Of a DNA stretch of 20,493 nucleotides, positions 1 through 20,078 are shown one piece after another. The number at the start of each line of letters is the position of its first letter. The stretch's first letter is position 1. The notes beneath the pieces were generated by a model. That model saw only the letters and a program-made list of their open reading frames with translations. It ran no database searches and was not told the origin of the DNA. The DNA is taken from positions 1-20,493 of IMG/VR virus record IMGVR_UViG_3300010883_000662. The stretch is one strand, 5' to 3'. A program made the translations under genes and the position numbers. The stretch comes from a virus.

Positions 1-420
1 CATAAAGGTAAACAAACCCCTCATGGTAATCCTATGCCATATCAAGAACTTTCACAAGAAGTTTATGAAACTTTAACTATTAAAGAAAAAAATAACTACC
101 ATATAGGTATGAGTAGATTAACTGAGGGCGAAGAGAAAAAATTTCATATAAGAATGATAAATAGATTTCGTAGAAATAACAAACTTCCTACCTTTGCGGC
201 TTCTAAATATGGTGGGGAAAGCATAATGAATAAAACATCCACAAGGGAAGAATATGAAAACATGACTAATGATGAGAAAAGAAAGTATCACAGAAAAATG
301 CAAAGTAGAAGTTTAAAAATAGGTAAAAAAGATAAGGCTAAATTCCATCAGAAAATGAATAATAGGTTGAGAAGGAATATCAACCTTCCCGTATTTTATT
401 CACCGGAGGATGAACAGTAA
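1..420 (+). CDS. 5'-truncated small basic repeat protein, candidate small terminase subunit
   Basis: The reading frame is open to the left edge, and the first ATG in the window (position 34) has no Shine-Dalgarno sequence, so the gene almost certainly starts upstream; 139 residues are visible. Counting from that ATG, the protein holds two diverged tandem repeats (about residues 11-54 and 74-121). Each begins Y-E-x-[LM]-T-x-x-E-K, continues with Y-H and F-H pairs, and ends N-R-[FL]-R-R-N then L-P-x-F. It is strongly basic and predicted helical. It lies directly before the large terminase and overlaps it by one base (TAATG), with GGAGGA at 405-410 serving the downstream start. Position, size and charge would suit a small terminase subunit that binds DNA, but no terminase motif is recognised; this role is inferred from position only. 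Confidence 0.6.
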   Translation, partial: HKGKQTPHGNPMPYQELSQEVYETLTIKEKNNYHIGMSRLTEGEEKKFHIRMINRFRRNNKLPTFAASKYGGESIMNKTSTREEYENMTNDEKRKYHRKMQSRSLKIGKKDKAKFHQKMNNRLRRNINLPVFYSPEDEQ

Positions 421-5045: not shown

Positions 5046-6884
5046 ATGATTATTGCAAAGGAAGACGACCTACTAGATGTTTTAGAAGAAAATATCAAAG
5101 GAAACAAGGAAGGTAAAAAAGAAGATTTTCCCTTCGGGTATACAAATAGGGCGGGGGACTTTGTAGAGGATTTATCAGCATATATAGAATTAATGTCACC
5201 AATTAATACATTAATCCAAAATTCAATTCAGGAAATAAAAACTAGTGAAAAAGAAATACTTGAAACTAATAATAAGGTTATAAAATTAAGAAAAGAATTA
5301 AAGTTATTACCTAAGAAAAATAAAGCAAAAAACGCTAAAATCAAAAAAGGTCTAATATCTTTGCAGAAAATTATTACTATATCTAAACAAAGTATAAAGA
5401 ATAACGAACAGTCTATTACTAAAGAAAAAATAGACTCTCTTATTGTTACAGAAGTTAAGAAAAAAACAAATACTAAATTAGGAGATACAGAAATTCTAAA
5501 TACTTTTAAACCAATGTATGTAAAGGCTAAAAAATCTTCCGAGGGTGAAAGAACTAGAGATTTAAAAGTTAAACCTAAAGTAGAAGGAGAAAAATATATT
5601 CCCACTGAAGAAGAATTAAAGGTAATAAATAGAAAAACTTCTATTAAATACGAAGATAGAGATATTAAACCTACTGATAAATCTAAATTTATACAAATAA
5701 TTCTACAAAAAATAGTTCCAACACCAACAGTCGAGGAAATTGAAAATGCTTGGGAAAAATTATTAGCAGGAGAAGATATGGGTTTTGATTCTACCGAAGA
5801 ATTAGAAGAAATAAAGGCAAAATACCAAGAAACCCCAAAAGTAGATACCGATTTAAGAAAAATACTTATTAGACTTTCAAGAAAAAGTAAGGTTTCTTCT
5901 AAAACAGAACAGAAGAAAAAATATAACTCTGTAGTTATAGCAGAATTTTTTGATGCAAAAGGCACAACCCAAAAAATGCATTTCTTAGATGATACAGAAA
6001 GTGAAAAACCTTTAAGACCCTTCAAGGTAAGTCATGGGTCTTTAATAATTAGTTTAACTCATTTAAAAATGCAGGTAGGCGGTACGATGCATCACCCAAG
6101 ACTAGAAACAGCGATAAACACATGGATGGGAAATAATGGCTATAACCCACTACAATTAAAACATTTACTAAATTTAGTTGAAAATTTATTTGGTGGTTCT
6201 TCTAGAAGTTCATTAGAAGGTAAAAATAACGAAGATTTTTATGATAACATATGGGAAATGCAAACAAATATTAAAGAAACCGTAGATAATAATATTATGG
6301 TAGACACTGTATTAGATAAAACTAAAATGGATACAATAAATAAAAATATATTAAAAGGTTTAGAATTAAGTAATAATTTTAGCCTAGAAGAATTAGGTAA
6401 AATAATAGTAAAAAGACCTGAAATAGAAGATAAAGTATTGAGGGATAATGTTATAAATTTTATAGACACGCCCGTTAATAATAAAACTTACGGTTATTTC
6501 ATTCTTAGGGCTATCGCTACTAAAGTCCCTTATAGAATATTGTTAAGGGAGGCTAAACCAACACAAAAGAAAATAGTGCAAGACTTAAGGAATATTAATA
6601 ATAAGTTGAAAAAGTCTATGGATGATCTAAACTCTAAACAAAGAAGGAAGGTCAAAACCTACCTTCAAGATGCCGACCCAACTGAATATTTTGGTGAGGA
6701 ATACCTAAAATTAGGAAAACTTATAAATATATTAGACGAAGTAGAGGGTAGTACAGGCGAACTAGAAGGGCTAGAAGAAGACAATCTAAAAATGATTAAA
6801 GTAGCCGCTTCATTAAGAAAAAAGTATGAAAATTTATACAGGAAATTAAGAGAAAAAGTATACCCGGAGGAAGAAGAAGAATGA
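5046..6884 (+). CDS. large coiled-coil-rich protein of unknown function
   Basis: This 612-aa, lysine- and glutamate-rich protein starts at ATG 5046 with GAGGT at 5034-5038; a TTG at 5040 is also in frame but is a less likely start. Roughly residues 45-135 are heptad-like and lysine-rich, consistent with a coiled coil. A middle section (about 270-390) contains more hydrophobic and Gly/His-containing segments and may be a folded domain. The last 110 residues are again charged helices ending in five glutamates. No catalytic motif, signal peptide or membrane segment is visible, and no family is recognised. The gene is embedded in the packaging/head operon and overlaps the next gene by 4 nt. A virion-internal or assembly role is plausible but unproven. 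Confidence 0.75.
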   Translation: MIIAKEDDLLDVLEENIKGNKEGKKEDFPFGYTNRAGDFVEDLSAYIELMSPINTLIQNSIQEIKTSEKEILETNNKVIKLRKELKLLPKKNKAKNAKIKKGLISLQKIITISKQSIKNNEQSITKEKIDSLIVTEVKKKTNTKLGDTEILNTFKPMYVKAKKSSEGERTRDLKVKPKVEGEKYIPTEEELKVINRKTSIKYEDRDIKPTDKSKFIQIILQKIVPTPTVEEIENAWEKLLAGEDMGFDSTEELEEIKAKYQETPKVDTDLRKILIRLSRKSKVSSKTEQKKKYNSVVIAEFFDAKGTTQKMHFLDDTESEKPLRPFKVSHGSLIISLTHLKMQVGGTMHHPRLETAINTWMGNNGYNPLQLKHLLNLVENLFGGSSRSSLEGKNNEDFYDNIWEMQTNIKETVDNNIMVDTVLDKTKMDTINKNILKGLELSNNFSLEELGKIIVKRPEIEDKVLRDNVINFIDTPVNNKTYGYFILRAIATKVPYRILLREAKPTQKKIVQDLRNINNKLKKSMDDLNSKQRRKVKTYLQDADPTEYFGEEYLKLGKLINILDEVEGSTGELEGLEEDNLKMIKVAASLRKKYENLYRKLREKVYPEEEEE

Positions 6885-7114
6885 ATGAAGAATATGGTGA
6901 TTTAACAGTATTGTTGAAAATGTTAGTAGAGCGAGTACAAGAATTAGAAAAATATGTTTATGACGGTGACAACATTTTAATGAAGTCGGGATTAGTCAAA
7001 GTTGAAGGCTCAAGGCCACATAGGTCTACTTCACCAGTGCCAGATTCTAATGTTATTTCAAAAATGGATTGGACTCAATTAGACGATATGGTTCGAAGAA
7101 TGACAGGTGAGTAA
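6881..7114 (+). CDS. small protein of unknown function
   Basis: The 77-aa protein is translationally coupled to the preceding gene through an ATGA overlap, with GGAGG about 10 nt before its ATG. Residues 1-27 form an acidic amphipathic helix with Leu/Val spacing suited to a short coiled coil. Residues 40-55 are Ser/Pro-rich and likely flexible, and the C-terminus is again helical (W-T-Q-L-D-D-M-V-R-R-M). No known family is recognised. The acidic two-helix layout with a flexible linker would suit an assembly adaptor, but nothing in the sequence proves that. Confidence 0.7.
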   Translation: MNEEYGDLTVLLKMLVERVQELEKYVYDGDNILMKSGLVKVEGSRPHRSTSPVPDSNVISKMDWTQLDDMVRRMTGE

Positions 7115-9654: not shown

Positions 9655-9999
9655 ATGAATTGGGAAGATATACTCAAAGTAAAAGCATGTGGTCTATGTT
9701 ACGTTACTGCTTATACTTATATTATAGAGGAAAATATGAAAAATGGGAGAGATGATTTAATTCTCGTTCATGCAGATGTAACAGGAACAGGTGGCGGGAT
9801 AGAAGGAGTAGTGTACGGACATGCTTTTGTTTTAGATGGTAATACTGTTATTGATACTGAACAATTAAGAAAAGGCAATACATATAAATTTCCCTACGAC
9901 TTCTATAAAAGAATGGGTAATGTAACTAATGAGAAAAAATATACTTTTTTAGAAGCGGCTAAAAAGTCGATAGATGCAGGAACTTATGGTCCGTGGTAA
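9655..9999 (+). CDS. small Cys/His protein, possible cysteine peptidase-like, with WEDILK N-terminus
   Basis: The 114-aa protein starts at ATG 9655, one base after the ligase stop, with GGTGG just upstream. Residues 1-8 are M-N-W-E-D-I-L-K, the shared N-terminal peptide. The rest has the layout of small papain-like/NlpC-like folds: Cys12 and Cys15 at the start of a helix (C-G-L-C-Y-V-T-A-Y), then a Gly-rich loop, then G-H-A-F-V-L-D-G with His56, and Asp67 in V-I-D-T. A Cys15-His56-Asp67 triad is a reasonable reading. It could be a peptidase, amidase or transglutaminase-like enzyme acting on host envelope or capsid proteins, or an inactive relative. No exact family is recognised, so the enzymatic role is inference. 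Confidence 0.6.
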   Translation: MNWEDILKVKACGLCYVTAYTYIIEENMKNGRDDLILVHADVTGTGGGIEGVVYGHAFVLDGNTVIDTEQLRKGNTYKFPYDFYKRMGNVTNEKKYTFLEAAKKSIDAGTYGPW

Positions 10000-10020
10000 T
10001 AGACAACAGGAGGAATACAA

Positions 10021-10845
10021 ATGACATCACCCGACATACAAGCCTCATTAGAAAATGCTGATGAGATAGCAGAATTGACAGGGCGTAGTAAAGGTGATGT
10101 TATAGCAGATCTATTAGATGATGGTAAATTGAATAATTCTAACGCTATGAAGGAAAACACATCGGCTCTTGAAAAAGCCACCAGTGCAGCAAAGGCAACA
10201 CATAAACTGCTAATAGCAGTTATCCCCATATTGATTCTTTTAGCAACAAGTGGCTTAGAATTAGGTGGTGTTATTAATTTAACACCTGCTGGTGCTGAAG
10301 AACCATTTTGGGAAGATGAAGAACCTGAATATGAAATCTATTGGGGTTGTACTGATTACTATGCAATTAATTATGACGATTACGCAAATGAAGATGATGG
10401 TTCATGTTATTATGAGGAAGAAGAAATATATGGTTGTATGGATGATATGGCTATGAATTATAATTACGAAGCAACAATTGATGATGGTTCATGTGAGTAT
10501 GAAGAACCGGAAGAAAACTGTACTGGTTCTTTTTACAGTGCTTCAGTAGAATTAATTACATCCAATAATACAACAGATTTGAAAATCTATTGGGATGCTG
10601 ATTGGTCTTGCGAAGTAAAACAGTATATTGAAGTTGATGTTGTTATTAAATGGACTGGAAATCAAACTTATTATTATAATAACTTTGCAGGTTACAATAC
10701 AACAGGTCAAGAAATAGATAACAAGGTCTTTACTAAAATAAATATACCAAGTGGGAATTACGATGTATGTCTTTCTTTTTGGGTTGATATTGATGGTTGG
10801 AGAATGGACTCCGAATGGAATGAAACAAATATAACAATTGCGTGA
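10021..10845 (+). CDS. membrane-anchored surface protein with two Cys-bounded Asp-rich repeats
   Basis: The 274-aa protein starts at ATG 10021 after AGGAGG. Residues 1-61 are polar and helical, with no signal peptide. Residues 62-88 are strongly hydrophobic and form one membrane anchor, so the C-terminal two-thirds should lie outside the cytoplasm. An acidic linker leads to two 21-residue repeats (109-129 and 138-158) of the form G-C-x-D-x-x-A-x-N-Y ending D-D-G-S-C, a repeat widespread in secreted proteins of marine bacteria and archaea and possibly calcium-binding. The remaining 110 residues look beta-rich and carry about seven N-x-[ST] sequons (N166, N182, N183, N214, N226, N267, N270). 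This suggests a glycosylated surface domain for host adhesion, superinfection exclusion or virion display; capture from a host gene is plausible. Confidence 0.72.
   Translation: MTSPDIQASLENADEIAELTGRSKGDVIADLLDDGKLNNSNAMKENTSALEKATSAAKATHKLLIAVIPILILLATSGLELGGVINLTPAGAEEPFWEDEEPEYEIYWGCTDYYAINYDDYANEDDGSCYYEEEEIYGCMDDMAMNYNYEATIDDGSCEYEEPEENCTGSFYSASVELITSNNTTDLKIYWDADWSCEVKQYIEVDVVIKWTGNQTYYYNNFAGYNTTGQEIDNKVFTKINIPSGNYDVCLSFWVDIDGWRMDSEWNETNITIA
10393..10494 (+). repeat. DNA repeat units coding the ends of the Asp-rich Cys repeats
   Basis: An exact 15-bp unit, GATGATGGTTCATGT, occurs at 10393-10407 and again at 10480-10494, coding D-D-G-S-C at the end of each protein repeat. The flanking repeat sequence is diverged at DNA level, so the duplication is not recent, or the ends are under stronger constraint. 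Confidence 0.7.
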
Positions 10846-10850
10846 TAATT

Positions 10851-11207
10851 ATGTGGTTTGATATTATTAAAAAACCTGAAACAACAACATTTGTTGTAAA
10901 GGATTCTATTTGGAATGCAGCAGGTGGTGAAGGTATGGATGGTATTTTAGATTTAGAAAAAAAATTAAATAGAAAATTAACCTTTGATGATTTTGATGAT
11001 TCATCTGCTAATTGGCATACTGATAGATTAAATGACTTAAAAAATAAACACCCTGAAACTCATGAACTTTTAATGGATAGATTGGGTGGAATAGAAGGAA
11101 CTAAAAAATTGGCAAAGAAGTATCTTAATAGAACAGAAAAATTTCCTAGTAGGTATGCTAAAACTCCCGATAATGAAATAGAAGCAAAGCGAATTTTAAA
11201 TATATAG
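10851..11207 (+). CDS. unknown protein with WFDIIK N-terminus
   Basis: The 118-aa protein most likely starts at ATG 10851; an in-frame GTG at 10842 overlaps the previous stop, and the ribosome site is weak, so translation is probably coupled. It begins M-W-F-D-I-I-K-K-P, a variant of the peptide that opens three other proteins in this window. The remainder is soluble and mixed, with an acidic stretch (T-F-D-D-F-D-D), several helices and a basic C-terminal third. No enzyme motif, Cys cluster or membrane segment is visible, and no family is recognised. It sits between the surface protein and another tagged protein, so a shared destination with its neighbours is plausible. Confidence 0.65.
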   Translation: MWFDIIKKPETTTFVVKDSIWNAAGGEGMDGILDLEKKLNRKLTFDDFDDSSANWHTDRLNDLKNKHPETHELLMDRLGGIEGTKKLAKKYLNRTEKFPSRYAKTPDNEIEAKRILNI

Positions 11208-11218
11208 GGGAGATTAAA

Positions 11219-11950
11219 ATGAATTGGGAAGATATTCTAAAAATAAAAGTAACTCGTACAGAACATTGGGATACAAAGGATATAAAAGAAGCATATAAAA
11301 AAATATCTAATAAGACATCCTATGATTACGAGGATATTCCTAATTGGCAATTTAGAAAACTTGTAGAATACTTTCAGTTAGATATGCAAAAGGTTTATTT
11401 TAATAAATACGACGGTGCGAATGGTCAAGGGAAAAAGGGGTTAGTTTTATTAAATAATCTTAAACCTCACAAATCTAAAGTCATAATATATCTAGATGAT
11501 AAAGGCGAACATACTATGGAGTCATTTATAAAATACGAAACTAAAACAATGTCATTTATAACTAATGAATCCCATCTATTCAACGACTATTTGAACATTA
11601 GGTCGGCCAACGACCAGCGTTCAGGAGTATACTTTCAAGAAATACTTAGAAAGGATGATAAATGGAGATTCGATACAATGTTACATAATTTACTTAGCAA
11701 AGTTAGCGAGCCCGTTCATCATACTATAGGGGTAAAAACAGAACATTTCGACATACCAATTACAATAAAGGTGAATATTAGTACTTGGGAAAACCTTAGT
11801 GAATTAGAAGGATTACTTAACCAAGCCACAAACGAAGATACTAAAAAACTATTAAAAATTTGGTGGTTCTCTATTGATTGGTCTACTCAGAAAAGAATTA
11901 AGGCACAGCCTGAATTATACGCAAGATTTCAAAAGGAGATATTATCATGA
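11219..11950 (+). CDS. unknown protein with WEDILK N-terminus
   Basis: The 243-aa protein starts at ATG 11219 with AGGGGAGA a few bases upstream. It opens M-N-W-E-D-I-L-K, identical in its first eight residues to the product of 9655. The next 235 residues are a mixed alpha/beta soluble protein with many aromatic residues, a central K-V-I-I-Y-L-D-D strand-like segment, and a C-terminal W-W-F-S-I-D-W helix. No catalytic motif is obvious; scattered His and Asp residues do not form a known signature. It overlaps the next gene by 4 nt. Function is unknown; the shared N-terminus suggests delivery to the same complex or compartment as the other tagged proteins. Confidence 0.7.
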   Translation: MNWEDILKIKVTRTEHWDTKDIKEAYKKISNKTSYDYEDIPNWQFRKLVEYFQLDMQKVYFNKYDGANGQGKKGLVLLNNLKPHKSKVIIYLDDKGEHTMESFIKYETKTMSFITNESHLFNDYLNIRSANDQRSGVYFQEILRKDDKWRFDTMLHNLLSKVSEPVHHTIGVKTEHFDIPITIKVNISTWENLSELEGLLNQATNEDTKKLLKIWWFSIDWSTQKRIKAQPELYARFQKEILS

Positions 11951-12147
11951 CATACGAAATTAGATTAGGAAAAAAAGGTTTTGATGTTATAGATACCAAA
12001 ACAAATACAAAAATTAATGAAAAGCCACTATCTTCAAAATCTAAAGCAAGGGGATTAGTAAAAACTCTCACTGATAAAAAAAATGATAATAAAAAAACCC
12101 GTTCCGATTCAATGGCTATGAGAATTTTAGGTAGAAATTTAGATTAA
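11947..12147 (+). CDS. small basic protein of unknown function
   Basis: The 66-aa, lysine-rich protein is coupled to the preceding gene by an ATGA overlap and has AAGGAG about 10 nt before its ATG. Residues 1-25 suggest a small beta hairpin (Y-E-I-R-L-G then F-D-V-I-D-T). The rest is basic and helical, ending M-A-M-R-I-L-G-R-N-L-D. It resembles a small nucleic-acid-binding protein in charge only; no family is recognised. It is the last gene before the promoter that opens the capsid operon. Confidence 0.65.
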   Translation: MTYEIRLGKKGFDVIDTKTNTKINEKPLSSKSKARGLVKTLTDKKNDNKKTRSDSMAMRILGRNLD

Positions 12148-12156
12148 AAAAACAAA

Positions 12157-12168
12157 TTTCAATTGAAA
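12157..12168. repeat. 12-bp perfect palindrome in the gap before the capsid operon
   Basis: TTTCAATTGAAA reads the same on both strands. It lies 9 nt after the stop at 12147 and about 22 nt before the TATA box. It could be a repressor or activator site upstream of the promoter, or chance in AT-rich DNA. No T-run follows, so a simple terminator is not supported. Confidence 0.35.
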
Positions 12169-12180
12169 AATGATTAAAAA

Positions 12181-12222
12181 GGTAGTTATATTTATATAGT
12201 AATCTACCGAAGACCTGTATAA
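12181..12222 (+). promoter_or_regulatory. archaeal-type TATA promoter for a leaderless protease/capsid mRNA
   Basis: TTTATATA at 12191-12198 matches an archaeal TATA box, and the purine-rich stretch just before it (12168-12185) could be the BRE. Initiation about 25-27 nt downstream of the box centre falls on or next to ATG 12222, which lacks any Shine-Dalgarno sequence; a leaderless transcript is the simple reading. GGTAG (12181-12185) and CTACC (12204-12208) flank the box as inverted 5-bp arms and could be an operator. This is the only clear promoter-sized gap in the window. Confidence 0.6.
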
Positions 12223-13373
12223 TGCAGTTAGAGACCCCTATGTTTGGTAAGTCCATTTCTGATGGTGGAGAATTTGTAATTCTTAAATCTGAACAAGATT
12301 TAGTTATTGCTGGATATGCTTCAGTAGATGTAGTGGATAAACAAAATGATAAAATTACACTATCCGCAATTAAAGAAGCGGCTGGTAAATTTATGAAAGG
12401 TGATCGTTATAGAAATGTAATGATTACCCATTCTAATGTACAAGTAGGGGAAGTTATGAACCAATGGTCGGATTCCAATGGTAAAGTCCTTAAAACGGGC
12501 GTTGATGATACAGGATTTTTTGTAGTGATAAAATTAAGAAATGACATAGAGAAAGCAAAAGAAGTTGCGAGAGATATTCGTAGGGGAAATTTGCGCTCTT
12601 TCAGTATTGGAGGTCAGGCAATTAGTAAAACTAATCGCTATGATGCTGATGTTGGTAGTTACAAGGAAATTGATAAACTTGAATTGCATGAAATTACTAT
12701 TTGTGAAGAGGGTATAAACCCGGAAGCAAAATTTAATATTGTAAAGGAGGACAAAAAAATGACAGAAGAAATTGAAAAGGCTCTTGCAGAGTTTAACGAT
12801 GTTATGGGTGAACTTAAAGGACATCTTGATACCGTTAAGAAAGACGATGAAGGAATAGATGCTTCTCTTGAAGAAGAAGTTGAAATGATGGATGAAGAAT
12901 TAGAAGAAGGAGAAGAAGAGGACCTTGAATTGGGTGACTATTCAGCAGAAGATGTTGAAGAAGAACCTACACTCAAGACCGACGCTACTATTGATTATGA
13001 TACATTCATTGAGCAAAAGGGAGAAGAAGTTACTACTCTCGACTTGAGTGAGGAAAACCTTGCTAAAGCATATGCTCAATTTAAGGCTGAAAAAGAAGAG
13101 GCTCGTGCATACGATTTAATCAAAGCACAATTTGAGTCCCGTTGGAACACTGAATTAGAAGTAGAAGCGGATTCTATCGCAAAGTCTACATTTGATTCTC
13201 GTAGTGAAATTAGCGAACTAAAAACAGAACTTGCAGACCTACGCAAGTCTATGGAAACTGAAACAATTGCAAAGTCGGCTGACACAGTAAATGCGTCTAC
13301 CACTATTGAAGTTGATATTAGTAACATGACTTGGGCTGAAGCACATGAGTTCGCAAACAACATGAGGGTGTGA
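12222..13373 (+). CDS. prohead serine protease fused to scaffold domain
   Basis: The protease matures the HK97-type prohead by cleaving scaffold and capsid protein. The N-terminal 175 residues match the prohead protease family (S78/U35 type): I-A-G-Y-A-S-V-D with following D-x-x-x-D (29-43), catalytic His70 in M-I-T-H-S-N, Ser128 in L-R-S-F-S-I-G-G, and the closing L-x-E-I-T-I-C-x-E-G-x-N-P-x-A segment (154-169). The C-terminal 204 residues are very acidic, helical and coiled-coil-like, typical of scaffold or delta-domain proteins. The ATG at 12222 has no ribosome site and probably begins a leaderless mRNA. Residue 180 is a Met with its own strong ribosome site, so the scaffold may also be made alone. 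The major capsid gene follows after 5 bp. Confidence 0.9.
   Translation: MQLETPMFGKSISDGGEFVILKSEQDLVIAGYASVDVVDKQNDKITLSAIKEAAGKFMKGDRYRNVMITHSNVQVGEVMNQWSDSNGKVLKTGVDDTGFFVVIKLRNDIEKAKEVARDIRRGNLRSFSIGGQAISKTNRYDADVGSYKEIDKLELHEITICEEGINPEAKFNIVKEDKKMTEEIEKALAEFNDVMGELKGHLDTVKKDDEGIDASLEEEVEMMDEELEEGEEEDLELGDYSAEDVEEEPTLKTDATIDYDTFIEQKGEEVTTLDLSEENLAKAYAQFKAEKEEARAYDLIKAQFESRWNTELEVEADSIAKSTFDSRSEISELKTELADLRKSMETETIAKSADTVNASTTIEVDISNMTWAEAHEFANNMRV
12743..12750 (+). promoter_or_regulatory. internal ribosome binding site for the scaffold
   Basis: AAAGGAGG lies inside the protease gene, 8 nt before an in-frame ATG at 12759. It is among the strongest Shine-Dalgarno matches in the window, and it sits exactly at the protease/scaffold boundary, which argues for use rather than coincidence. 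Confidence 0.65.
12759..13373 (+). CDS. internally initiated scaffold protein (204 aa)
   Basis: This is the proposed separate product from the in-frame internal ATG at 12759 of the protease gene. It would be the C-terminal 204 residues alone: a Glu/Asp-rich helical protein with an extreme acidic run near its residues 35-60 and likely coiled coils in its second half. An independent scaffold made from the 3' end of the protease gene is known from lambda (C/Nu3), and it supplies many scaffold copies per protease. Codons such as CGT for Arg and CTC/CTT for Leu are more frequent here than in the protease half, in line with higher expression. The internal start is inferred from the ribosome site and boundary position. 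Confidence 0.6.
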   Translation: MTEEIEKALAEFNDVMGELKGHLDTVKKDDEGIDASLEEEVEMMDEELEEGEEEDLELGDYSAEDVEEEPTLKTDATIDYDTFIEQKGEEVTTLDLSEENLAKAYAQFKAEKEEARAYDLIKAQFESRWNTELEVEADSIAKSTFDSRSEISELKTELADLRKSMETETIAKSADTVNASTTIEVDISNMTWAEAHEFANNMRV

Positions 13374-13378
13374 ATTAA

Positions 13379-14581
13379 ATGACAGGATATTACAAAACAA
13401 TTGAAGATTTAGAAAGAGCAACATACGGAATGTCTGGTAGCGACCAACTATTGAAGGCCACTACTGGTATTCATTCTATACACGATGGCGCACAAACTCT
13501 TGGAAGTCAAGGACTTTACAACCTAGTTTACGGACAAAAGGTTTGGTCACTTATTAACCGAGAAATGAATGCTCTAAGTATTCTACCTAAGAAACCGTGG
13601 AATGCTAGTGGATGGAGAGTCCTAACTAGTCGTTCTCTTGGTGGAGCAACAGATGTATTTACTGTTGCAGATTTGGATAATCTCGGTGGAGTTGCAGAAA
13701 ACGCTTCCATTTCAGGTATTACAGAAATTGCACCAACATTCGATATACTTCATGCATCTCCTAAGACTATAGCGCATACTTACGAAGTAAGTGAAATTGC
13801 ACAGTTGATGGGTGGTCTTGATGATGGTATTGGAGATATTATGGCTGCATACCGAGAAGAAGTGGGAGTTTCACACGCTGAATCAATGAATAAGATGGTT
13901 ATTACTGACCTAACTGAATTGGATGCTGCTGGATATGGTACTGAAGGTAACTCTTTGCTATCTTTGTATAAGATTGTTTCAACTTTTGCTGAAATGAATG
14001 CACTAACAGCAGCAGGTAGAGCCGCTTCTCCTTTGAATTTGTACGGACAAACACGACATACATCTGACACTGCTTATTTAGAAGCATATGTAGATAGCAA
14101 TTCAGGAACAGACCGTCAACTTACTGTTAACTTGCTAAACACAGCACTAAGAAACTTGAATGCTCGTGGTGGAGATCCAAAGGTTATTCTAACAGGATAC
14201 GACACTATTCAGGATTTGGGAGAACTTCTACAATCACAGGAAAGATTCATGGGTCGTGCAGAAGTAGTACCTACTCATGGTGGAATTAAAGGTGTTAAGG
14301 GAAGAGAGATTGGTTTCAAGGTTGCAACATACCACGATATACCAATTATCCCTGTAAAGGATATGCCTAACGGTGGTGCTGGTCTAAGTGATATGCTTAT
14401 TCTAGATACAGACCATCTTTTCCTATGTACTCTAAAGCCTACTGAATATTTCGAGGCTGGAATGGATACTGGAGAAGTATTTGGACATGGTAAACTAGGA
14501 CACCGTGGACTATACCGTACTGTTGCTGAAACTATGTGTACTTACTTCCGTGGTCAAGGAAAGATTATTGACTTGGTTTGA
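13379..14581 (+). CDS. major capsid protein, HK97 fold
   Basis: The 400-aa protein would form the icosahedral shell. It starts at ATG 13379 with GAGGGTG about 9 nt upstream, 5 nt after the protease-scaffold stop. The call rests on position directly after the protease-scaffold gene, on size, and on sequence character. The N-terminal region is helical and polar; central residues about 60-130 show the E-N-A-S-I-S type N-arm/E-loop features of HK97-like proteins; and the C-terminal half has P-K-V-I-L-T-G-Y followed by G-F-K-V-A-T-Y-H-D-I-P-I-I-P typical of the P and A domains. No membrane segments occur. CGT/CGA Arg and GGA Gly codons are more common than in neighbouring genes, consistent with abundant expression. 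The next gene's ribosome site overlaps its stop. Confidence 0.87.
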   Translation: MTGYYKTIEDLERATYGMSGSDQLLKATTGIHSIHDGAQTLGSQGLYNLVYGQKVWSLINREMNALSILPKKPWNASGWRVLTSRSLGGATDVFTVADLDNLGGVAENASISGITEIAPTFDILHASPKTIAHTYEVSEIAQLMGGLDDGIGDIMAAYREEVGVSHAESMNKMVITDLTELDAAGYGTEGNSLLSLYKIVSTFAEMNALTAAGRAASPLNLYGQTRHTSDTAYLEAYVDSNSGTDRQLTVNLLNTALRNLNARGGDPKVILTGYDTIQDLGELLQSQERFMGRAEVVPTHGGIKGVKGREIGFKVATYHDIPIIPVKDMPNGGAGLSDMLILDTDHLFLCTLKPTEYFEAGMDTGEVFGHGKLGHRGLYRTVAETMCTYFRGQGKIIDLV

Positions 14582-14591
14582 GGTGTTTTAA

Positions 14592-14972
14592 TTGACACAA
14601 CAATTCATAACAGCAATTGCTGACCATACAGGAGTTTCTGCTCCTAAAGTAGTAGGTGCAGAATATGTCGTAGACCTTTTTGTGAAAATGACAGTTTATC
14701 ATACAGCAGATGTGATTAATGCTTCTGATGTAGGACTAAGTACAATTAATGCAGCAGTAATAACAGGTACAACCGGAGGTGTTTCTGATGGTAGTATGGC
14801 GAGTGGTGCTTATATTCAAGTACCTACCGCTAATGTTGCCACAGGTCTTTATACAAGTAGTACTAGTATCAAAATAGTTTTACATGATAATGATGGTGAC
14901 TGTACTGTTTTATCCAATGCAACAAATATGGATGATATGACATTTAGACTCCGCATTTGGGGCAACCTTTGA
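14592..14972 (+). CDS. small beta-rich virion protein candidate, TTG start
   Basis: The 126-aa product begins at TTG 14592, the only start with a ribosome site: GAGGTG at 14580-14585, overlapping the capsid stop. The next in-frame Met is at residue 33, which would delete a well-formed N-terminus. The protein is rich in Thr, Ser, Val, Ala and Gly with alternating hydrophobic residues, suggesting a beta-sandwich, and ends in a basic/aromatic segment (F-R-L-R-I-W-G-N-L). Coming straight after the major capsid gene, it is a candidate head decoration or capsid-stabilising protein. No family is recognised with certainty. Confidence 0.7.
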   Translation: MTQQFITAIADHTGVSAPKVVGAEYVVDLFVKMTVYHTADVINASDVGLSTINAAVITGTTGGVSDGSMASGAYIQVPTANVATGLYTSSTSIKIVLHDNDGDCTVLSNATNMDDMTFRLRIWGNL

Positions 14973-14985
14973 TTAGGTGGTTAAA

Positions 14986-15324
14986 ATGGTAATGATTAGA
15001 AATAACGGACCAACAGTAACTACTTTGGGATTACTTTTCCAGCGTGGTTTTTGGTATGAAGTTTCTGATGGTGTAGCAAAAAGAATTACAAGTAAAAGTG
15101 CAAACTTTGAATTGGAGCAGGAAGAGGGTTCGCCCTCTCCTGTTCTTACTTCTTTAGAAGAAGAAATTATTGAAGTGGTAGCAGAAGAAGTTACTGTAGA
15201 TATAGGTTCAATGTCTAAGAAGCAATTGCAAGAGTATTTATCATCATTAGGAATTACTTTTAAGAAGTTAGATAGTAAGACTAAATTACAAGATTTGGCT
15301 TTTTCACTTGATGAAGAAGAATAA
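14986..15324 (+). CDS. small head-associated protein with HeH/LEM-like C-terminus
   Basis: The likely start is ATG 14986, with AGGTGG at 14975-14980; a GTG at 14977 lies in the same frame but inside that ribosome site. The 112-aa protein has an N-terminal beta-like region (residues 1-45) with the flavour of short phage structural proteins that sit next to capsid genes. An acidic linker follows, and residues about 76-108 match the two-helix HeH/LEM pattern: M-S-K-K-Q-L-Q-E-Y-L then L-G-I-T-F then S-K-T-K-L-Q-D-L. Such domains occur at the ends of head-tail proteins and can bind DNA or proteins. Function is inferred from the pattern and position, not proven. Confidence 0.7.
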   Translation: MVMIRNNGPTVTTLGLLFQRGFWYEVSDGVAKRITSKSANFELEQEEGSPSPVLTSLEEEIIEVVAEEVTVDIGSMSKKQLQEYLSSLGITFKKLDSKTKLQDLAFSLDEEE

Positions 15325-15330
15325 ACTTTA

Positions 15331-15352
15331 TTAGTGTAGTCAACTTCACTAA
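15331..15352 (+). other. hairpin-forming inverted repeat
   Basis: TTAGTG (15331-15336) and CACTAA (15347-15352) can form a 6-bp stem; after one T-T mismatch, AGT and ACT add three inner pairs. It lies in the 46-nt gap before the 15371 gene and just upstream of its ribosome site. It might set mRNA processing or expression of the downstream genes. An adjacent TTTATTA (15327-15333) could also be a weak TATA element; both readings are uncertain. Confidence 0.3.
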
Positions 15353-15370
15353 CATTAGAGAGGAATATAT

Positions 15371-15649
15371 ATGCCCTATGTATCAACAAAAATAACAGCA
15401 AACACTTTGATTAGTGCAACAGGTGGACTTCTAGGTGGAGTACTTATTGTAGCAGGTTCAGGTGCATCAACTACAAACAATGTTAAAGTATTTGATTCAG
15501 CAGATAATTCAGGCATACAAGTAGCCGAGTTTGATGTAACCCCCTCAGATACCGAATTATACAGAGGTTTAGACATTGTTATGAGAACAGGTATGTATGT
15601 TGAATGTGCTGCTTGGACTGAATTAGCCGTTTATGTATTACACAATTGA
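15371..15649 (+). CDS. small virion protein candidate (decoration or neck)
   Basis: The 92-aa protein starts at ATG 15371 with GAGAGG a few bases upstream. It has a hydrophobic Gly/Ala-rich segment (about residues 13-32, A-T-G-G-L-L-G-G-V-L-I-V-A-G) within an otherwise beta-like sequence: S-A-D-N-S-G-I then P-S-D-T-E-L-Y-R-G-L. This resembles small phage proteins that form a beta-sandwich with a strand pattern around value-like surface loops, often found next to capsid genes. The hydrophobic segment is too rich in Gly and Ser at its ends to call a clear membrane anchor. The gene probably makes a minor capsid or decoration subunit; this is inference. Confidence 0.65.
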   Translation: MPYVSTKITANTLISATGGLLGGVLIVAGSGASTTNNVKVFDSADNSGIQVAEFDVTPSDTELYRGLDIVMRTGMYVECAAWTELAVYVLHN

Positions 15650-15659
15650 GGTGTAATAT

Positions 15660-18254
15660 ATGCCTAATACAAAAGTCCCAAGGATAGCAACAGATACAAT
15701 CGTGTCTATTGACAATTCAGATTGGGATGAAAATGTAGCATTAAAGGCTATGGCTCGATTTTCAACACCTAATGCATATAAGGTTTTAAAAAAGTACTTT
15801 AAAGTATGGTTGATAGACGACCATTCAGATGTAAAAGGACTTGTTGGATACAATGATGATATATTCGATAATATTAATAAAATTGCATTCGCAAAACTAT
15901 TAACATTAGATATAACTGCGTTAAATGTGGACAGTCTTAGCACTGATTCATTGGCTGAACCTAAAGCCGCTTTAGAAGTTTTTGACCAAATACAATTTAA
16001 AGAAAAAGGTAAAAGGGATATTGTAAATGATTCTGATATAATAGCGCAATTAGTTTCTGAAATAGGGGAATTAAAACAGCGTAAAGAAGAATTAATCGAC
16101 CAAGATGATAAAGATTACATAGATAGTTATATTCAATCTTTAGAAAGTATGAAAATTAAACGAGAGGGTAAAGTAAAAATAACTTTGCAGGAAGTTTTAG
16201 AAAATAAAGGTCAGCGATTTTTTACTACAATAGATATTAACGATGAAGATATGCATGAGTTAATAGGTGAATACGGTTTTATTAAACGATTATCTACACA
16301 ACAATTTGCTGAACAAACAGATAACTTGTTAGAAGGGTTATCTAATACATTAACTGATAAAATGGGAGAAACTGTAAATTTAGAAGAATATATTGATAAA
16401 AGACAAATTGCACATTATCAAAAAGAAGAAATTTTAAATTACTTGAAATCTAAATTACCCACAGGTGGTAGTATTATTGAATGGTTAGAAAGTGAAGATT
16501 CTTCCTATACAGAAAAAGATGGGGTAAAAACTGCTAATGCTTTAGGAATTACAGGTTTTGATTATTATAAATATATGCCGGATGAAATATCATTAACTGA
16601 AGAAGAAGCAAAAGATTTAAAAGAAAATGGTATTGAAGTAGACGAACTTACCATTAAAGTAGGAAAAAATTTCCCAATGACTCGTGAAACATATCGAGAG
16701 TTTTTAAGAATAATTTCTCAAGATAAGGCTTTAGGTATAATTAAAGAAAGTTTAAAAATAAGGGCTGGTCAAAAATTAGATACTGAAATTAGAGAATATT
16801 ATAATAAACATTTAGATTCATTAAATATTAACCCAAAAATTAAGTCTAAAGGTGGTTTAGTTCAAAGAGATATTAAAATACCTAATACTACTTTAGCCTT
16901 TAAGCGTGGTATAAAAAGTATTAAGTTTAGGAGACAAAAATCGAACAAAGAAAGTAATATTGATGTTAATTCAGAAGGGAAAAATACAGTTGTAATAGGA
17001 AAAATACCATTCTTTTCCTTTAACTTAATACCTGAATGGAAAATAGGAAATTCATATAATACTACTAAAAATAGATTAAAAAAGCAAATACAAGTTAAAG
17101 GATCTTTTACTATTAAAGACCAAAGTCAAAATAAAAAACTAAGAAAATTAGTAAAAAATCAATCCTTGAAGGGGGACTATGTAAAAATTGATAAGTTTTT
17201 AAAAATGACTAATCGTGTTTCTGATAATACTATTAAAAGAAAATTGGAAAATCAATTTAAACCACGCTTTGAAGAATTTGTGGAGTATTATGACGAATTT
17301 ATATTAATGACTCAAAAAGATAAATGGTCACAAGAATTTGAAAATGAAATAGATTTTACACAAATACAAGAATTTGAAAATTATTCATCAGATGAAATGA
17401 TTGACCTTTTAATAAAAATGCATACAGAAGGTGAAAAATTAGATTTTATCCAAGAAGTACATGATGATTTAAGAAGTATACAAAGATTTCTTAATGATTA
17501 TAAAAAAGAATTAAATACAAAATTTAAGAACCAAGATAAAAAATCGGGAATTACTGCTATTGATGCTGAAATAGATATGACACCCGATGAATTTAATGCA
17601 TTAGATATTAACGATGAAGAAGATAATATAATAGATATTTGTGTTGATTCTATGGCTACTACAATTAGTACTGAATTAAATAAATGGGTTCCTCCAGCAG
17701 ATAGCGGGGATTTAGAAACTATGGTTAGAGAATTAATAACCAATATGGGTTTAGATATGAAAGATTTTGAAAATGAAATACAATCACTTGCTGGGACAAA
17801 CCCACAGTTTGTTAACTTGAGAGCAAAATTAGAAAAAGAATTTAAAGCGTTAGAAAAAACAGGTACATTTAACACTGATATTGACGAAGCAGATATTCAA
17901 GAATTATTAAAAGAATACGGCCTATATGAAAAATTAAGTCAAATATCTAAAGGTACTGATGTGACAGACCCAAGAAATCAAGGTGATATGTCAATAACTT
18001 TTAAACTTAAATTTACACCAATTGGTTTAGACTTAGATTTAGAGGCTATTTATAGTGTTAAGGAAACTAATTCCCCCACAATTACTTCAGCAACAGTCCC
18101 CAATACAAAAATAAGACAACAAGGTTCTTTTAATATTCCAGTGTCGGGCTCTAAAAGAATTAAAAGCGGCGTTGCTATTGACAGGAATAAAAAGGAATTT
18201 TATATAGAAGTAAGGCAAAATTTAATAAACTTGAAAAGGAGTGTAGGTATATGA
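15660..18254 (+). CDS. large helical protein of unknown function (864 aa)
   Basis: The longest gene of the window starts at ATG 15660 with GAGGTG 8 nt upstream and overlaps the next gene by ATGA. It is rich in Lys, Glu, Asp, Asn and Ile, mostly helical with charged coiled-coil-like stretches (about residues 110-175 and 560-660). Beta-like parts lie around 395-470 and in the final 90 residues. No membrane segment, signal peptide or catalytic motif is recognised. It stands between the capsid group and the head-tail connector, where known HK97-type gene orders have no protein of this size. Its codon use is more AT-rich than that of the capsid gene. It could be an internal head protein, an ejected protein or a lineage-specific insertion. 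Confidence 0.78.
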   Translation: MPNTKVPRIATDTIVSIDNSDWDENVALKAMARFSTPNAYKVLKKYFKVWLIDDHSDVKGLVGYNDDIFDNINKIAFAKLLTLDITALNVDSLSTDSLAEPKAALEVFDQIQFKEKGKRDIVNDSDIIAQLVSEIGELKQRKEELIDQDDKDYIDSYIQSLESMKIKREGKVKITLQEVLENKGQRFFTTIDINDEDMHELIGEYGFIKRLSTQQFAEQTDNLLEGLSNTLTDKMGETVNLEEYIDKRQIAHYQKEEILNYLKSKLPTGGSIIEWLESEDSSYTEKDGVKTANALGITGFDYYKYMPDEISLTEEEAKDLKENGIEVDELTIKVGKNFPMTRETYREFLRIISQDKALGIIKESLKIRAGQKLDTEIREYYNKHLDSLNINPKIKSKGGLVQRDIKIPNTTLAFKRGIKSIKFRRQKSNKESNIDVNSEGKNTVVIGKIPFFSFNLIPEWKIGNSYNTTKNRLKKQIQVKGSFTIKDQSQNKKLRKLVKNQSLKGDYVKIDKFLKMTNRVSDNTIKRKLENQFKPRFEEFVEYYDEFILMTQKDKWSQEFENEIDFTQIQEFENYSSDEMIDLLIKMHTEGEKLDFIQEVHDDLRSIQRFLNDYKKELNTKFKNQDKKSGITAIDAEIDMTPDEFNALDINDEEDNIIDICVDSMATTISTELNKWVPPADSGDLETMVRELITNMGLDMKDFENEIQSLAGTNPQFVNLRAKLEKEFKALEKTGTFNTDIDEADIQELLKEYGLYEKLSQISKGTDVTDPRNQGDMSITFKLKFTPIGLDLDLEAIYSVKETNSPTITSATVPNTKIRQQGSFNIPVSGSKRIKSGVAIDRNKKEFYIEVRQNLINLKRSVGI

Positions 18255-19324
18255 GTAAAATATTTACACCATCCGACTCGGCTTTGAATGTTGTAGACTA
18301 TTCTAACGCTAATGGTGCTTATACAACAGGTGTAAAGATTGCAGCCCTTTTAGGTATTAGTGATTTTACTACATCTACCTCACCTACTAAAGCAGAAATA
18401 GGGGATATTATTAGAAGATGTGAGGATTATGTAGATGAAGTAACTAATTCTTCATGGAGAGAAAATATTATACAAAATGAGTTTCACGATTTCCAATGGA
18501 CAGCAGCATTAAAAACTGTTTGGGATGATTATAGAGGAAAAATTAGAGTCCATAATGAACATATTAGAAAGATTATTCGTATTGCTATTTGGGAAGGAGA
18601 TGTATATAAAGACATAGCAAGTGTAGTTTCTATTGTAACTTTATCTGATTACAATAATATAACTTCAATTACTTTAGGTGCAGGTGGTAAATCTTGGGTT
18701 TTAACAGCAGGCACTACTAATGCCACTTTCAATAAAACATTGGGGAAAAGGAGTACGGCACAGGAAATTTGTTATTTAATTAATGAACAACCTCCGGTAT
18801 TAACTGCCCCATTTACAGGTGCAACTGCAAGTAAAGTTTTGCAGGACACAGGTACTTCTAAAAATATTTCTAACTTCTTTTATGCTAATTTAGAAGAAGA
18901 CGACACTGTAACAATTGTTTCTTTATTGCCCGGTTCAGACGGTTCCAATTCTACTATTACTTCTTCAGGTAGTGGTGTTAGTTATGTGGCCTTTACAGAC
19001 AAAGAAACTTATGACCGTAATGGTACTTGGTGGGATATGAAAGATACAGGAGATATTTTCTTCCGTACTGAATATCCTTATCACCAAAAACATTCTATTA
19101 AAGTCACATATTCCTACGGCAATTCAAGAGTTCCTGCAATTATTGAAGATGCCGCTACAAAACTTGCTGCTTGTGAAATTATAGCAGCAGACGATTCTTA
19201 TGTATTGTTAGGAGATGATAATACAAGTGGTCTAGATCTAAAGTCTAAATACGATTCGTATAAGGCTGATGTAGATAAGATTTTAAAGTTAAAGCGTAGA
19301 GTGCTATATTACTTGGATAGTTGA
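18251..19324 (+). CDS. probable head-tail connector with inserted domain
   Basis: The 357-aa protein is coupled to the previous gene (ATGA) and has AAAAGGAG upstream. Residues about 25-72 show a hydrophobic helix then S-P-T-K-A-E-I-G-D-I-I-R-R-C-E-D-Y-V-D-E, the first helices of HK97 gp6/SPP1 gp15-type connectors. The C-terminal 60 residues (V-P-A-I-I-E-D-A-A-T-K-L-A-A-C then K-S-K-Y-D-S-Y-K-A-D-V-D-K-I) match their last helices. Connectors are usually about 100-200 aa; here the middle (about 120-270) holds a beta-rich, Thr/Ser/Gly-rich insertion. The protein would bind the portal and extend the neck. The identification rests on helix pattern, order of genes and size of the conserved ends. 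Confidence 0.6.
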   Translation: MSKIFTPSDSALNVVDYSNANGAYTTGVKIAALLGISDFTTSTSPTKAEIGDIIRRCEDYVDEVTNSSWRENIIQNEFHDFQWTAALKTVWDDYRGKIRVHNEHIRKIIRIAIWEGDVYKDIASVVSIVTLSDYNNITSITLGAGGKSWVLTAGTTNATFNKTLGKRSTAQEICYLINEQPPVLTAPFTGATASKVLQDTGTSKNISNFFYANLEEDDTVTIVSLLPGSDGSNSTITSSGSGVSYVAFTDKETYDRNGTWWDMKDTGDIFFRTEYPYHQKHSIKVTYSYGNSRVPAIIEDAATKLAACEIIAADDSYVLLGDDNTSGLDLKSKYDSYKADVDKILKLKRRVLYYLDS

Positions 19325-19329
19325 TTGAT

Positions 19330-19644
19330 ATGAATGAAGAATGGATTCCTTTAGATAGTTGGTGGCTTGTAGTTAAAGGTCCTTCTAGGGGTAGGTCTTT
19401 TATGAAAAAATTTGAAAAAGAATTGAATAGCAGAGGCTATACAATTAATAGAAATAAAAGTAAAGCGGCTGTTGGTGGAACTCATATGAAATTAGCAATA
19501 ATTGAAGAAAGTACAGGTGAAGAAAAAGAAGCAACTATTACACCCGTAGATAAAGGAAATGCGGTTAAAAATGCAGTTGCTCAAGTATTAGGAATGTTTA
19601 AGGGTAGAGGAAGAAGGGGACAAGGTAGTTTTAAATTGGAGTGA
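19330..19644 (+). CDS. small neck-region protein of unknown function
   Basis: The ATG at 19330 is chosen over the in-frame TTG at 19321, which overlaps the preceding stop; no good ribosome site is visible, so translation may be coupled to the connector gene. The 104-aa product opens with a Trp-rich segment (W-I-P-L-D-S-W-W-L-V-V-K-G). The middle is a mixed alpha/beta domain with F-M-K-K-F-E-K-E-L and later T-H-M-K-L-A-I-I-E-E, and the tail is basic (G-R-G-R-R-G-Q-G). Its place just after the connector fits a head-closure or neck component, but no family is recognised. Confidence 0.6.
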   Translation: MNEEWIPLDSWWLVVKGPSRGRSFMKKFEKELNSRGYTINRNKSKAAVGGTHMKLAIIEESTGEEKEATITPVDKGNAVKNAVAQVLGMFKGRGRRGQGSFKLE

Positions 19645-19649
19645 AAAAA

Positions 19650-20078
19650 ATGTGGGAAGATATATTAAAAATGATGGTTCCGTCGGAATTTATGGAACAG
19701 GTGAAAAAGCATGTGGAAGGCGGAGAAATAGAAAATAAAACCAAACATGGTAAGAAAAAACAGGGAGATTTTGTTAGAAATGTAACCCATTTAGAATTAA
19801 GAGATAGCAATAATAGAGTATACAAATTAATGCACGACCCTAGAATATCTATAAATCCTAACCAAGAATACAGTTTCAGATTCCATAAATATGCAGGTGC
19901 TGATTTAATGAAAGAAATTAGAGGCTACAATCTAAAGAAAATGTTAGAATTATTTAAAGGAATGTGGAAATACGATTCAGAAGATATAGAAAACATGGGT
20001 CCTTTAGGAGCATTGTTAGTTGGTGGGGCTGCACAAGGAGTAAAAACAGTAGCAGAAAATGTTGAAGGTAAGGTTTAA
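19650..20078 (+). CDS. unknown protein with WEDILK N-terminus, neck region
   Basis: Starting at ATG 19650 (GGAGTG upstream; an in-frame GTG at 19641 lies inside that ribosome site), the 142-aa product opens M-W-E-D-I-L-K-M-M, the peptide shared with the products of 9655, 10851 and 11219. A Lys/Glu-rich region (about 20-45) is followed by a folded alpha/beta part containing V-Y-K-L-M-H-D-P-R and E-Y-S-F-R-F-H-K-Y. The last 30 residues include a Gly/Ala/Leu-rich segment (G-P-L-G-A-L-L-V-G-G-A-A) that may contact a membrane or pack in a helix bundle. Among neck genes it may be a virion component. No family is recognised. Confidence 0.65.
   Translation: MWEDILKMMVPSEFMEQVKKHVEGGEIENKTKHGKKKQGDFVRNVTHLELRDSNNRVYKLMHDPRISINPNQEYSFRFHKYAGADLMKEIRGYNLKKMLELFKGMWKYDSEDIENMGPLGALLVGGAAQGVKTVAENVEGKV

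What the first reader, a model, noticed from the sequence alone, without database searches (positions are those of the whole stretch)
9655..19720. Shared N-terminal peptide M(N)W-[EF]-D-I-[LI]-K on four unrelated proteins
Four genes (starts 9655, 10851, 11219, 19650) begin M-N-W-E-D-I-L-K, M-W-F-D-I-I-K-K, M-N-W-E-D-I-L-K and M-W-E-D-I-L-K-M, and the remaining sequences do not resemble each other. A short amphipathic peptide reused at the same end of different proteins suggests a docking or targeting tag. By analogy with cargo-loading peptides of encapsulins and T4 capsid-targeting sequences, it may recruit proteins into the head or onto one structural partner, so that enzymes such as the Cys/His protein are packaged and delivered. 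I know of no described family for this tag, though I cannot search. If confirmed, it would let one find the packaged effectors of this virus group by motif alone.
Basis: partly seen in the sequence, partly recalled or inferred. Interest (0 to 1): 0.8.

Follow-up and report, generated by a model that had tools for sequence, protein, structure and literature searches.

The report
Shared N-terminal tag on magrovirus proteins
Viruses of abundant ocean archaea put the same eight-residue address label (roughly M-S-W-E-D-I-L-K) on the front of 10 to 30 otherwise unrelated proteins per genome, most likely to load them into the virus head, which gives a way to list the cargo of uncultured viruses from sequence alone.

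Summary
The window is part of a magrovirus (tailed viruses of Poseidoniales archaea). In 18 related contigs (1370 genes) the strict motif W-x-x-I-[ILV]-K starts at residue 2-5 in 184 proteins, against 0.14 in shuffled proteomes. Eight further, more distant genomes give 80 against 0.06. Relaxed, 251 proteins in 157 unrelated families carry it. All lie on the virion-gene strand (0 of 440 replication-strand genes), mostly upstream of terminase, and never on terminase, portal, protease or major capsid protein. Conservation stops sharply at residue 8; codons vary freely. One module, 75% identical in a cyanophage, lacks the tag there, and fused proteins keep it as an internal linker: it is a portable peptide.

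Best explanation: a prohead/virion-loading tag that works like the T4 capsid-targeting sequence but is unrelated in sequence and far more widely used. A possible mechanism is that the prohead protease-scaffold and a small coiled-coil protein end in a similar M-[SD]-W-x-[DE]-[ILV] helix, so cargo may use the scaffold's docking site; support is suggestive only. Packaging itself is inferred, not shown. In this window the tagged Cys/His protein is probably a papain-like cysteine hydrolase.

The parts
9655..9999 (+). Tagged protein 1 (114 aa): tag MNWEDILK (codons 9655-9678) plus a papain-like Cys-His-Asp domain (C15, H56, D67)
   Evidence: AF2: residues 1-12 below pLDDT 50, body mostly 70-85; top structural matches are papain-like amidases/proteases, Z up to 7.5
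10851..11207 (+). Tagged protein 2 (118 aa): tag MWFDIIK (10851-10871); homologues in three other contigs, all tagged
   Evidence: phrog_6053, unknown function, E 1e-4; F94, 4 of 4 tagged
11219..11950 (+). Tagged protein 3 (243 aa): tag MNWEDILK (11219-11242); no relative found
19650..20078 (+). Tagged protein 4 (142 aa): tag MWEDILK (19650-19670); homologue in G002 tagged MSWKEILKMM
   Evidence: (F186)
12222..13373 (+). Prohead serine protease (S78) fused to a long helical scaffold part; C-terminal helix MTWAEAHEFANN (codons about 13326-13361) with invariant Trp, possible counterpart of the tag's core motif
6881..7114 (+). Small scaffold-like protein (77 aa, N-terminal coiled-coil-like stretch), ends KMDWTQLDDMVRRMTGE (motif about 7064-7111)
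13379..14581 (+). Major capsid protein (SU10/HK97-like), untagged; presumed ultimate docking partner
420..1841 (+). Terminase large subunit, untagged; landmark for the tagged region
3207..4826 (+). Portal protein, untagged
   Evidence: conserved in 18 of 18; name from synteny with HVTV-1

Best explanation
The peptide M-x(0-2)-W-x-[DN]-I-[LI]-K is a portable targeting tag of magroviruses. It is a short amphipathic helix at the front of late proteins that docks them onto the assembling prohead (scaffold core or inner capsid surface), so that 10 to 30 different proteins per virus are carried in the head and probably delivered to the next cell. Shown here: the tag is real, modular, conserved as a peptide, restricted to virion-strand genes, and nearly specific to this virus group. 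Inferred: that it binds a head component and that tagged proteins are packaged. More tentative: that it docks at the site used by the C-terminal M-[SD]-W-x-[DE]-[ILV] helix of the protease-scaffold and of the small coiled-coil protein.
For: Enrichment 184 vs 0.14 and 80 vs 0.06. Representatives of 149 unrelated tagged families align only at MxWxxILK; per-position information falls from 3.5 bits at K8 to 0.37 and below after it. 251 tags on the virion strand, 0 of 440 on the replication strand, 0 of 72 on terminase/portal/protease/MCP, 45% of genes upstream of terminase, 4% in the tail module. Codon use in the tag equals genome codon use. Modularity: family F72 starts MSWQDILKAK-RIPRKKGQ... while the cyanophage Bellamy homologue (about 75% identity) starts MSNP-RIPRKPGQ...; fused versions keep ...VITWKDILKAK-RIPRKKGQ inside. 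37 of 50 contigs found by the tag's DNA pattern alone carry the magrovirus terminase. HVTV-1, a haloarchaeal relative, shows no tag in the genes read. Cargo is diverse: papain-like fold, PAP2 phosphatase, GNAT, metallopeptidase-like and small basic proteins. Known parallel: T-even internal proteins are a highly diverse set sharing only a capsid targeting sequence (PMC3012670).
Against: No virion proteome exists for these uncultured viruses, so packaging is unproved. No complex with a partner was modelled. No T4-type protease site ([LI]xE) is enriched behind the tag. The tag also occurs inside fused proteins (14 vs 1.3 expected), so a free N-terminus is not strictly required; this also fits a processing site. 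The scaffold resemblance is only partial: with a profile of the tag the scaffold C-termini do not rank high, and in the reverse test the true column order ranked 8 of 120 for the protease-scaffold but only 43 of 120 for the small protein.
Confidence: 0.65

Rival explanations
1. The motif is mainly a processing site: the prohead protease cuts at or after I-[LI]-K, releasing the body of each late protein or separating fused modules; targeting is by something else.
For: Internal copies sit exactly between modules in fused proteins (F72, F34, F179). The MCP has a conserved [IL]-[LIM]-K-[AGS] about 25 residues in, and long N-terminal forms of family F64 carry ...YEDILKAI or ...DSDELLKG. A K at the end of the motif is its most fixed residue after W.
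Against: No clear preference at the residue after K. The conserved Trp five residues upstream and the strict N-terminal position are not needed for a simple protease site. The MCP and F64 sites lack the Trp.
Confidence: 0.15
2. The tag directs late proteins to another place in the infected cell (membrane, assembly site) or to one non-head partner such as the tail or packaging motor, with no packaging in the head.
For: Any shared docking peptide would show much the same genomic pattern; the partner is not identified.
Against: Nearly absent from the tail module and absent from replication genes; clustered around head-assembly genes; diversity of cargo matches internal-protein sets of T4 and P1 (PMC3012670, PMC9024508).
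Confidence: 0.15
3. The sequence is conserved at the nucleic-acid level (translation start enhancer, promoter or recombination site) and the peptide is a by-product.
For: Nearly always at the start of genes; one pair in the window is 89% identical over 35 nt.
Against: 189 distinct DNA versions of 228 tags, synonymous codons used as in the rest of the genome; retained internally as peptide in fusions.
Confidence: 0.03
4. The tagged proteins are divergent paralogues of one family.
For: Some genomes have tandem arrays with a longer shared leader (G025, L099:3494-9597).
Against: 157 families without detectable similarity beyond the tag, with different domains.
Confidence: 0.02

Closest known systems
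T4 capsid targeting sequence (CTS) of internal proteins IPI-III and Alt
   Same: Short N-terminal peptide as the only shared part of a diverse, fast-changing set of late proteins; a prohead protease is encoded; works by docking to the prohead core (PMC3012670, PMC5694885).
   Different: Different sequence (Trp-centred); no [LI]xE processing site behind it; used on 10-30 proteins per genome; archaeal viruses; tag also tolerated inside fusions; packaging not yet shown.
P1 DarB N-terminal packaging signal
   Same: N-terminal signal that sends a large effector into the head (PMC9024508).
   Different: In P1 no consensus among Dar N-termini was found and more than 9 residues are needed; here one consensus of 8 residues is shared by all.
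Herpesvirus UL26/UL26.5 protease-scaffold C-terminus
   Same: A protease-scaffold fusion and a shorter scaffold share a C-terminal MCP-binding element (PMC12474303); here the protease-scaffold and a small coiled-coil protein share a C-terminal Trp helix.
   Different: No cargo set with an N-terminal copy of that element is known to me in herpesviruses; no sequence relation tested or claimed; binding to MCP untested here.
Encapsulin cargo-loading peptides
   Same: Short peptide loads enzymes into an HK97-fold shell (own knowledge).
   Different: Those are mostly C-terminal with few cargos per system; here N-terminal, dozens of cargos, and a virus.

Membership tests
T4-type capsid targeting sequence | Short N-terminal peptide shared by otherwise unrelated late proteins | tested here: met
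T4-type capsid targeting sequence | Followed by a T4 gp21-type cleavage site ([LI]xE) | tested here: not met
   32% of tagged proteins at residues 9-35 vs 33% at 36-62 and 38% in untagged late proteins
T4-type capsid targeting sequence | Bearers are found inside the virion head | not testable with these tools
   no virion proteome of magroviruses in the held sources
T4-type capsid targeting sequence | Sufficient to package a foreign protein | not testable with these tools
   needs experiment
Scaffold C-terminal docking helix (proposed counterpart of the tag) | Core M-[SD]-W-x-[DE]-[ILV] conserved in scaffold C-termini | tested here: met
   of 25 non-N-terminal matches in set A, 22 lie within 22 residues of a C-terminus (0.11 expected), all in the protease-scaffold and the small protein; repeated in set B
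Scaffold C-terminal docking helix (proposed counterpart of the tag) | Scaffold profile recognises N-terminal tags in the right register | tested here: inconclusive
   AUC 0.80, rank 8 of 120 permutations (protease-scaffold); AUC 0.70, rank 43 of 120 (small protein)
Magrovirales (window's virus group) | Relatives of about 90-110 kb with opposed morphogenesis and replication arms; MCP related to Druskaviridae | tested here: met
   description in PMC12999244; family-level placement not attempted
Papain-like cysteine hydrolases (protein at 9655) | Papain-like fold with Cys on a helix and His/Asp on strands | tested here: inconclusive
   coherent group of papain-like matches, Z 4-7.5, but no Foldseek hit below E 0.4 and only two sequences in the alignment

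The most novel reading that the evidence does not exclude
The tag is a portable copy of the capsid-docking helix of the virus's own scaffold: scaffold proteins carry it at the C-terminus and 10-30 cargo proteins per virus carry it at the N-terminus, so cargo enters the head by posing as scaffold. Any module can be made cargo by adding eight codons, and the whole injected protein set of an abundant uncultured virus order can be read from sequence.
Probability: 0.33. Interest if true: 0.88.

Novelty: new variant of a known kind. Interest (0 to 1): 0.77.

Why it matters
[quoted passage not shown] A tag that marks about a quarter of their virion-strand genes turns an anonymous set of several hundred proteins into a testable list of probable head cargo and delivered effectors. 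It would show that a T4-like cargo-loading logic arose separately in archaeal viruses, on a larger scale, and it would provide a short handle for loading foreign proteins into a new capsid in the laboratory.

Tried and rejected
Profile of the tag against scaffold C-termini: not top-ranked. ADP-ribosyltransferase idea for tagged family F184 (YHGT...EGI by eye): no support in PDB sequences or Pfam, dropped. Anti-defence families: PADLOC, NCBIfam and most Pfam/PHROG hits among 149 tagged representatives are weak single hits, so no common function of the cargo is claimed; the Lar restriction-alleviation hit (E 0.001, one protein) is only a lead. AF2 of the protease-scaffold was poor overall (pLDDT 45) and is used only for the position of the terminal helix. 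A test of host proteomes was not possible: MCP relatives in genome contigs fell on four marine MAG contigs labelled Altibacter or Maricaulis, probably mis-binned viral contigs. Cyanophage T4-GC119, which holds untagged homologues of several tagged modules, could not be checked in the S-SM1 virion table (supplement not available). Literature search for the peptide or for such a tag in magroviruses found nothing in the papers that could be read; the main magrovirus papers of 2017 and 2025 are not held, so prior mention cannot be excluded.

Full report
WHAT THE WINDOW IS. The window is a 20.5 kb IMG/VR virus record. Its major capsid protein (MCP) retrieves 38 IMG/VR contigs, many 86-96 kb long, and among named phages only Druskaviridae haloviruses and one Methanofastidiosa virus at 24-28% identity. 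The relatives have a virion arm and a replication arm on opposite strands, as described for Magrovirales, viruses of Poseidoniales archaea (PMC12999244). I therefore treat it as a magrovirus; the exact family was not determined.

The four starts are exact. I fetched 17 related contigs, called genes with a simple coding-potential and start-site script, and counted the strict motif W-x-x-I-[ILV]-K. It begins at residue 2-5 in 184 of 1370 proteins; shuffling each protein gives 0.14 on average, at most 2. In 136 cases exactly one residue separates Met and Trp, in 42 none. Ser is the second residue in 46% of one-spacer tags against 12% in other proteins. Eight further and more distant genomes (median 38-44% identity of shared proteins) give 80 of 978 against 0.06. 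Near-complete genomes of set A have 7-19 strict and 10-27 relaxed tags, plus near-variants such as MWRDVLK or MSWEDTL.

IT IS A PEPTIDE AND IT IS PORTABLE. After removal of the first 12 residues, tagged proteins form 157 families, 110 of them singletons. A multiple alignment of 149 family representatives has a consensus only at MxWxxILK, and information content falls to background right after the Lys. The alignment members were chosen by the motif, so W, I, L and K are conserved by selection there; but among all 331 proteins with Trp at residues 2-4, chosen without regard to the rest, I, L and K are still present in 60, 63 and 74%. The 228 tags checked at DNA level use 189 different sequences with ordinary codon choice, so selection acts on the peptide. 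The clearest case of modularity is family F72: magroviruses have MSWQDILKAK-RIPRKKGQPANSKKHSDLYTDENPKG..., the cyanophage Bellamy gp123 has MSNP-RIPRKPGQPANSKKHSDLYTDENPKG... at about 75% identity. Fused magrovirus proteins keep the tag in front of the same module (...SEDVITWKDILKAK-RIPRKKGQ). The same is seen for families F33/F34. Some core-region genes have the tag in some genomes and not in others (F64, F65, F71). In F64 the untagged long form from G015 carries ...NYEDILKAI... where the G025 form has its tag.

WHERE IT IS FOUND. All 251 relaxed tags are on the strand of the virion genes, none among 440 genes of the opposite strand (Fisher p 2e-48). None is on terminase, portal, protease or MCP (0 of 72). 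They make up 45% of genes upstream of terminase, 22% of other genes between terminase and MCP, 12% of the ten genes after MCP and 4% of the tail region. Of 50 contigs examined from this and the first pattern scan, 37 carry the magrovirus terminase (36 at E below 1e-200); several others are fragments with magrovirus-like genes, such as G034 with 9 tags, or single chance hits. The halovirus HVTV-1 shows no tag in the proteins read.

WHAT THE TAGGED PROTEINS ARE. Most match nothing. Recognisable ones include a PAP2 phosphatase (E 1e-15, in a protein that also carries the small basic KWPSAYASG module), GNAT acetyltransferases, putative metallopeptidases, EF-hand and zinc-ribbon proteins, and one weak hit to restriction-alleviation protein Lar. 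The window's Cys/His protein at 9655 was modelled: the tag (residues 1-12) is a detached low-confidence helix, and the body resembles papain-like amidases and proteases, the closest being NTAQ1 (Z 7.5), LapG (6.4) and protein-glutaminase (5.7), with C15, H56 and D67 placed as a possible triad (the triad assignment is mine). Foldseek alone gave nothing significant, so the fold is probable, not proven. Some genomes have tandem arrays of tagged proteins with a longer shared leader and divergent bodies, for example G025 (L099:3494-9597), which looks like a fast-changing effector locus.

HOW IT MOST LIKELY WORKS. The known system with this logic is the capsid targeting sequence of T4: T-even internal proteins are a highly diverse set with only that sequence in common (PMC3012670), it joins them to the prohead core, and it is later removed by the prohead protease (PMC5694885). 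Phage P1 DarB has a comparable N-terminal signal (PMC9024508). Magroviruses encode an S78 prohead protease fused to a helical scaffold part. The exclusive late-strand position, the absence from shell, portal, terminase, most tail and all replication genes, and the variety of cargo fit head loading better than any rival I could think of. That the cargo is then injected is a further inference.

A POSSIBLE DOCKING MECHANISM. The protease-scaffold ends in a conserved helix with an invariant Trp (EMSWDEINELVREL and variants), set off by a disordered stretch and beginning at the Trp in the AF2 model (low confidence). A small coiled-coil protein encoded nearby (window 6881-7114) ends in KMDWSELDELVKKMSGE-like sequences. 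Both share M-[SD]-W-x-[DE]-[ILV] with the tag. Of 25 non-N-terminal matches to M[STNDK]W.[DEN][ILV] in 1370 proteins, 22 lie at C-termini (0.11 expected) and all 22 belong to these two families. The distant set B repeats this, there often with Lys at the same place as in the tag (EMDWSDIHKMV against MSWEDILKM). By analogy, herpesvirus protease-scaffold and scaffold share a C-terminal element that binds the MCP (PMC12474303). The caution is that the pattern was chosen after seeing the sequences, it is in effect two events, and stricter tests were mixed: a scaffold profile separates N-terminal tags from internal Trp windows with AUC 0.80 (protease-scaffold, rank 8 of 120 column permutations) and 0.70 (small protein, rank 43 of 120), and the tag's own profile does not rank the scaffold ends high. 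I give this mechanism about one in three.

ALTERNATIVES. A processing-site role remains open because internal copies sit between modules (14 against 1.3 expected) and the MCP has a conserved [IL][LIM]K[AGS] near its N-terminus. No T4-type cleavage site follows the tag. Targeting to a place other than the head cannot be excluded without proteomics.

NOVELTY. In kind it is a capsid-targeting-like signal, so I file it as a new variant of a known kind. It is not filed as a member of the T4 CTS family: one defining feature tested (the cleavage site) is not met and others are untestable here. No description was found in the papers that could be read, but key magrovirus papers were not held.

Noticed in passing
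window:10021-10845: Untagged protein with one transmembrane-like stretch and GC[TM]D..A.NY...A..DDGSC repeats, with relatives in 5 of 18 contigs; possibly a host-derived surface repeat.
   Followed up: partly
window:1816-3204: Gene between terminase and portal whose C-terminal half looks like a LAGLIDADG homing endonuclease (YVAGFIDSDGYI); HVTV-1 has an HNH endonuclease at the same place.
   Followed up: no
window:7599-9653: ATP-dependent DNA ligase encoded inside the head-gene block; its family (F0) is present in all 18 contigs of the group, not only in a replication arm.
   Followed up: no
window:9651-9685 and 11215-11249: 35 nt around the two MNWEDILK starts are 89% identical, including bases before the start codon: possible recent copying of the tag as DNA.
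   Followed up: partly
L099:3494-9597 (G025); similar arrays in G018, L059, L136, L186, L042: Tandem arrays of tagged proteins that share a longer, lineage-specific leader (e.g. DILKNIQISSQRTSSKDYVKPDE) and then diverge completely.
   Followed up: partly
L281:77-1282 (Synechococcus phage S-SSM5), L282:73-1929 (phage Bellamy gp123): T4-like cyanophages string untagged versions of several modules that magroviruses encode as separate tagged proteins into one 400-620 aa protein, next to terminase in Bellamy.
   Followed up: partly
G026:C1:9835-11250, G071:C1:47413-48825 (-), G027:C1:51740-53155 (-): Terminase match reported with one TGA stop inside the open frame in three genomes: recoding, a split gene or just a neighbouring frame; not examined.
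   Followed up: no
G050 (IMGVR_UViG_3300021958_000021, 184733 bp): Record carries two magrovirus terminases about 90 kb apart, so it is probably two genomes joined in assembly.
   Followed up: no
window:13379-13460 and the MCPs of all related contigs: MCP N-terminus has a conserved TIxDLExATYG followed by a conserved [IL][LIM]K[AGS] about residue 25, a candidate prohead-protease site.
   Followed up: partly
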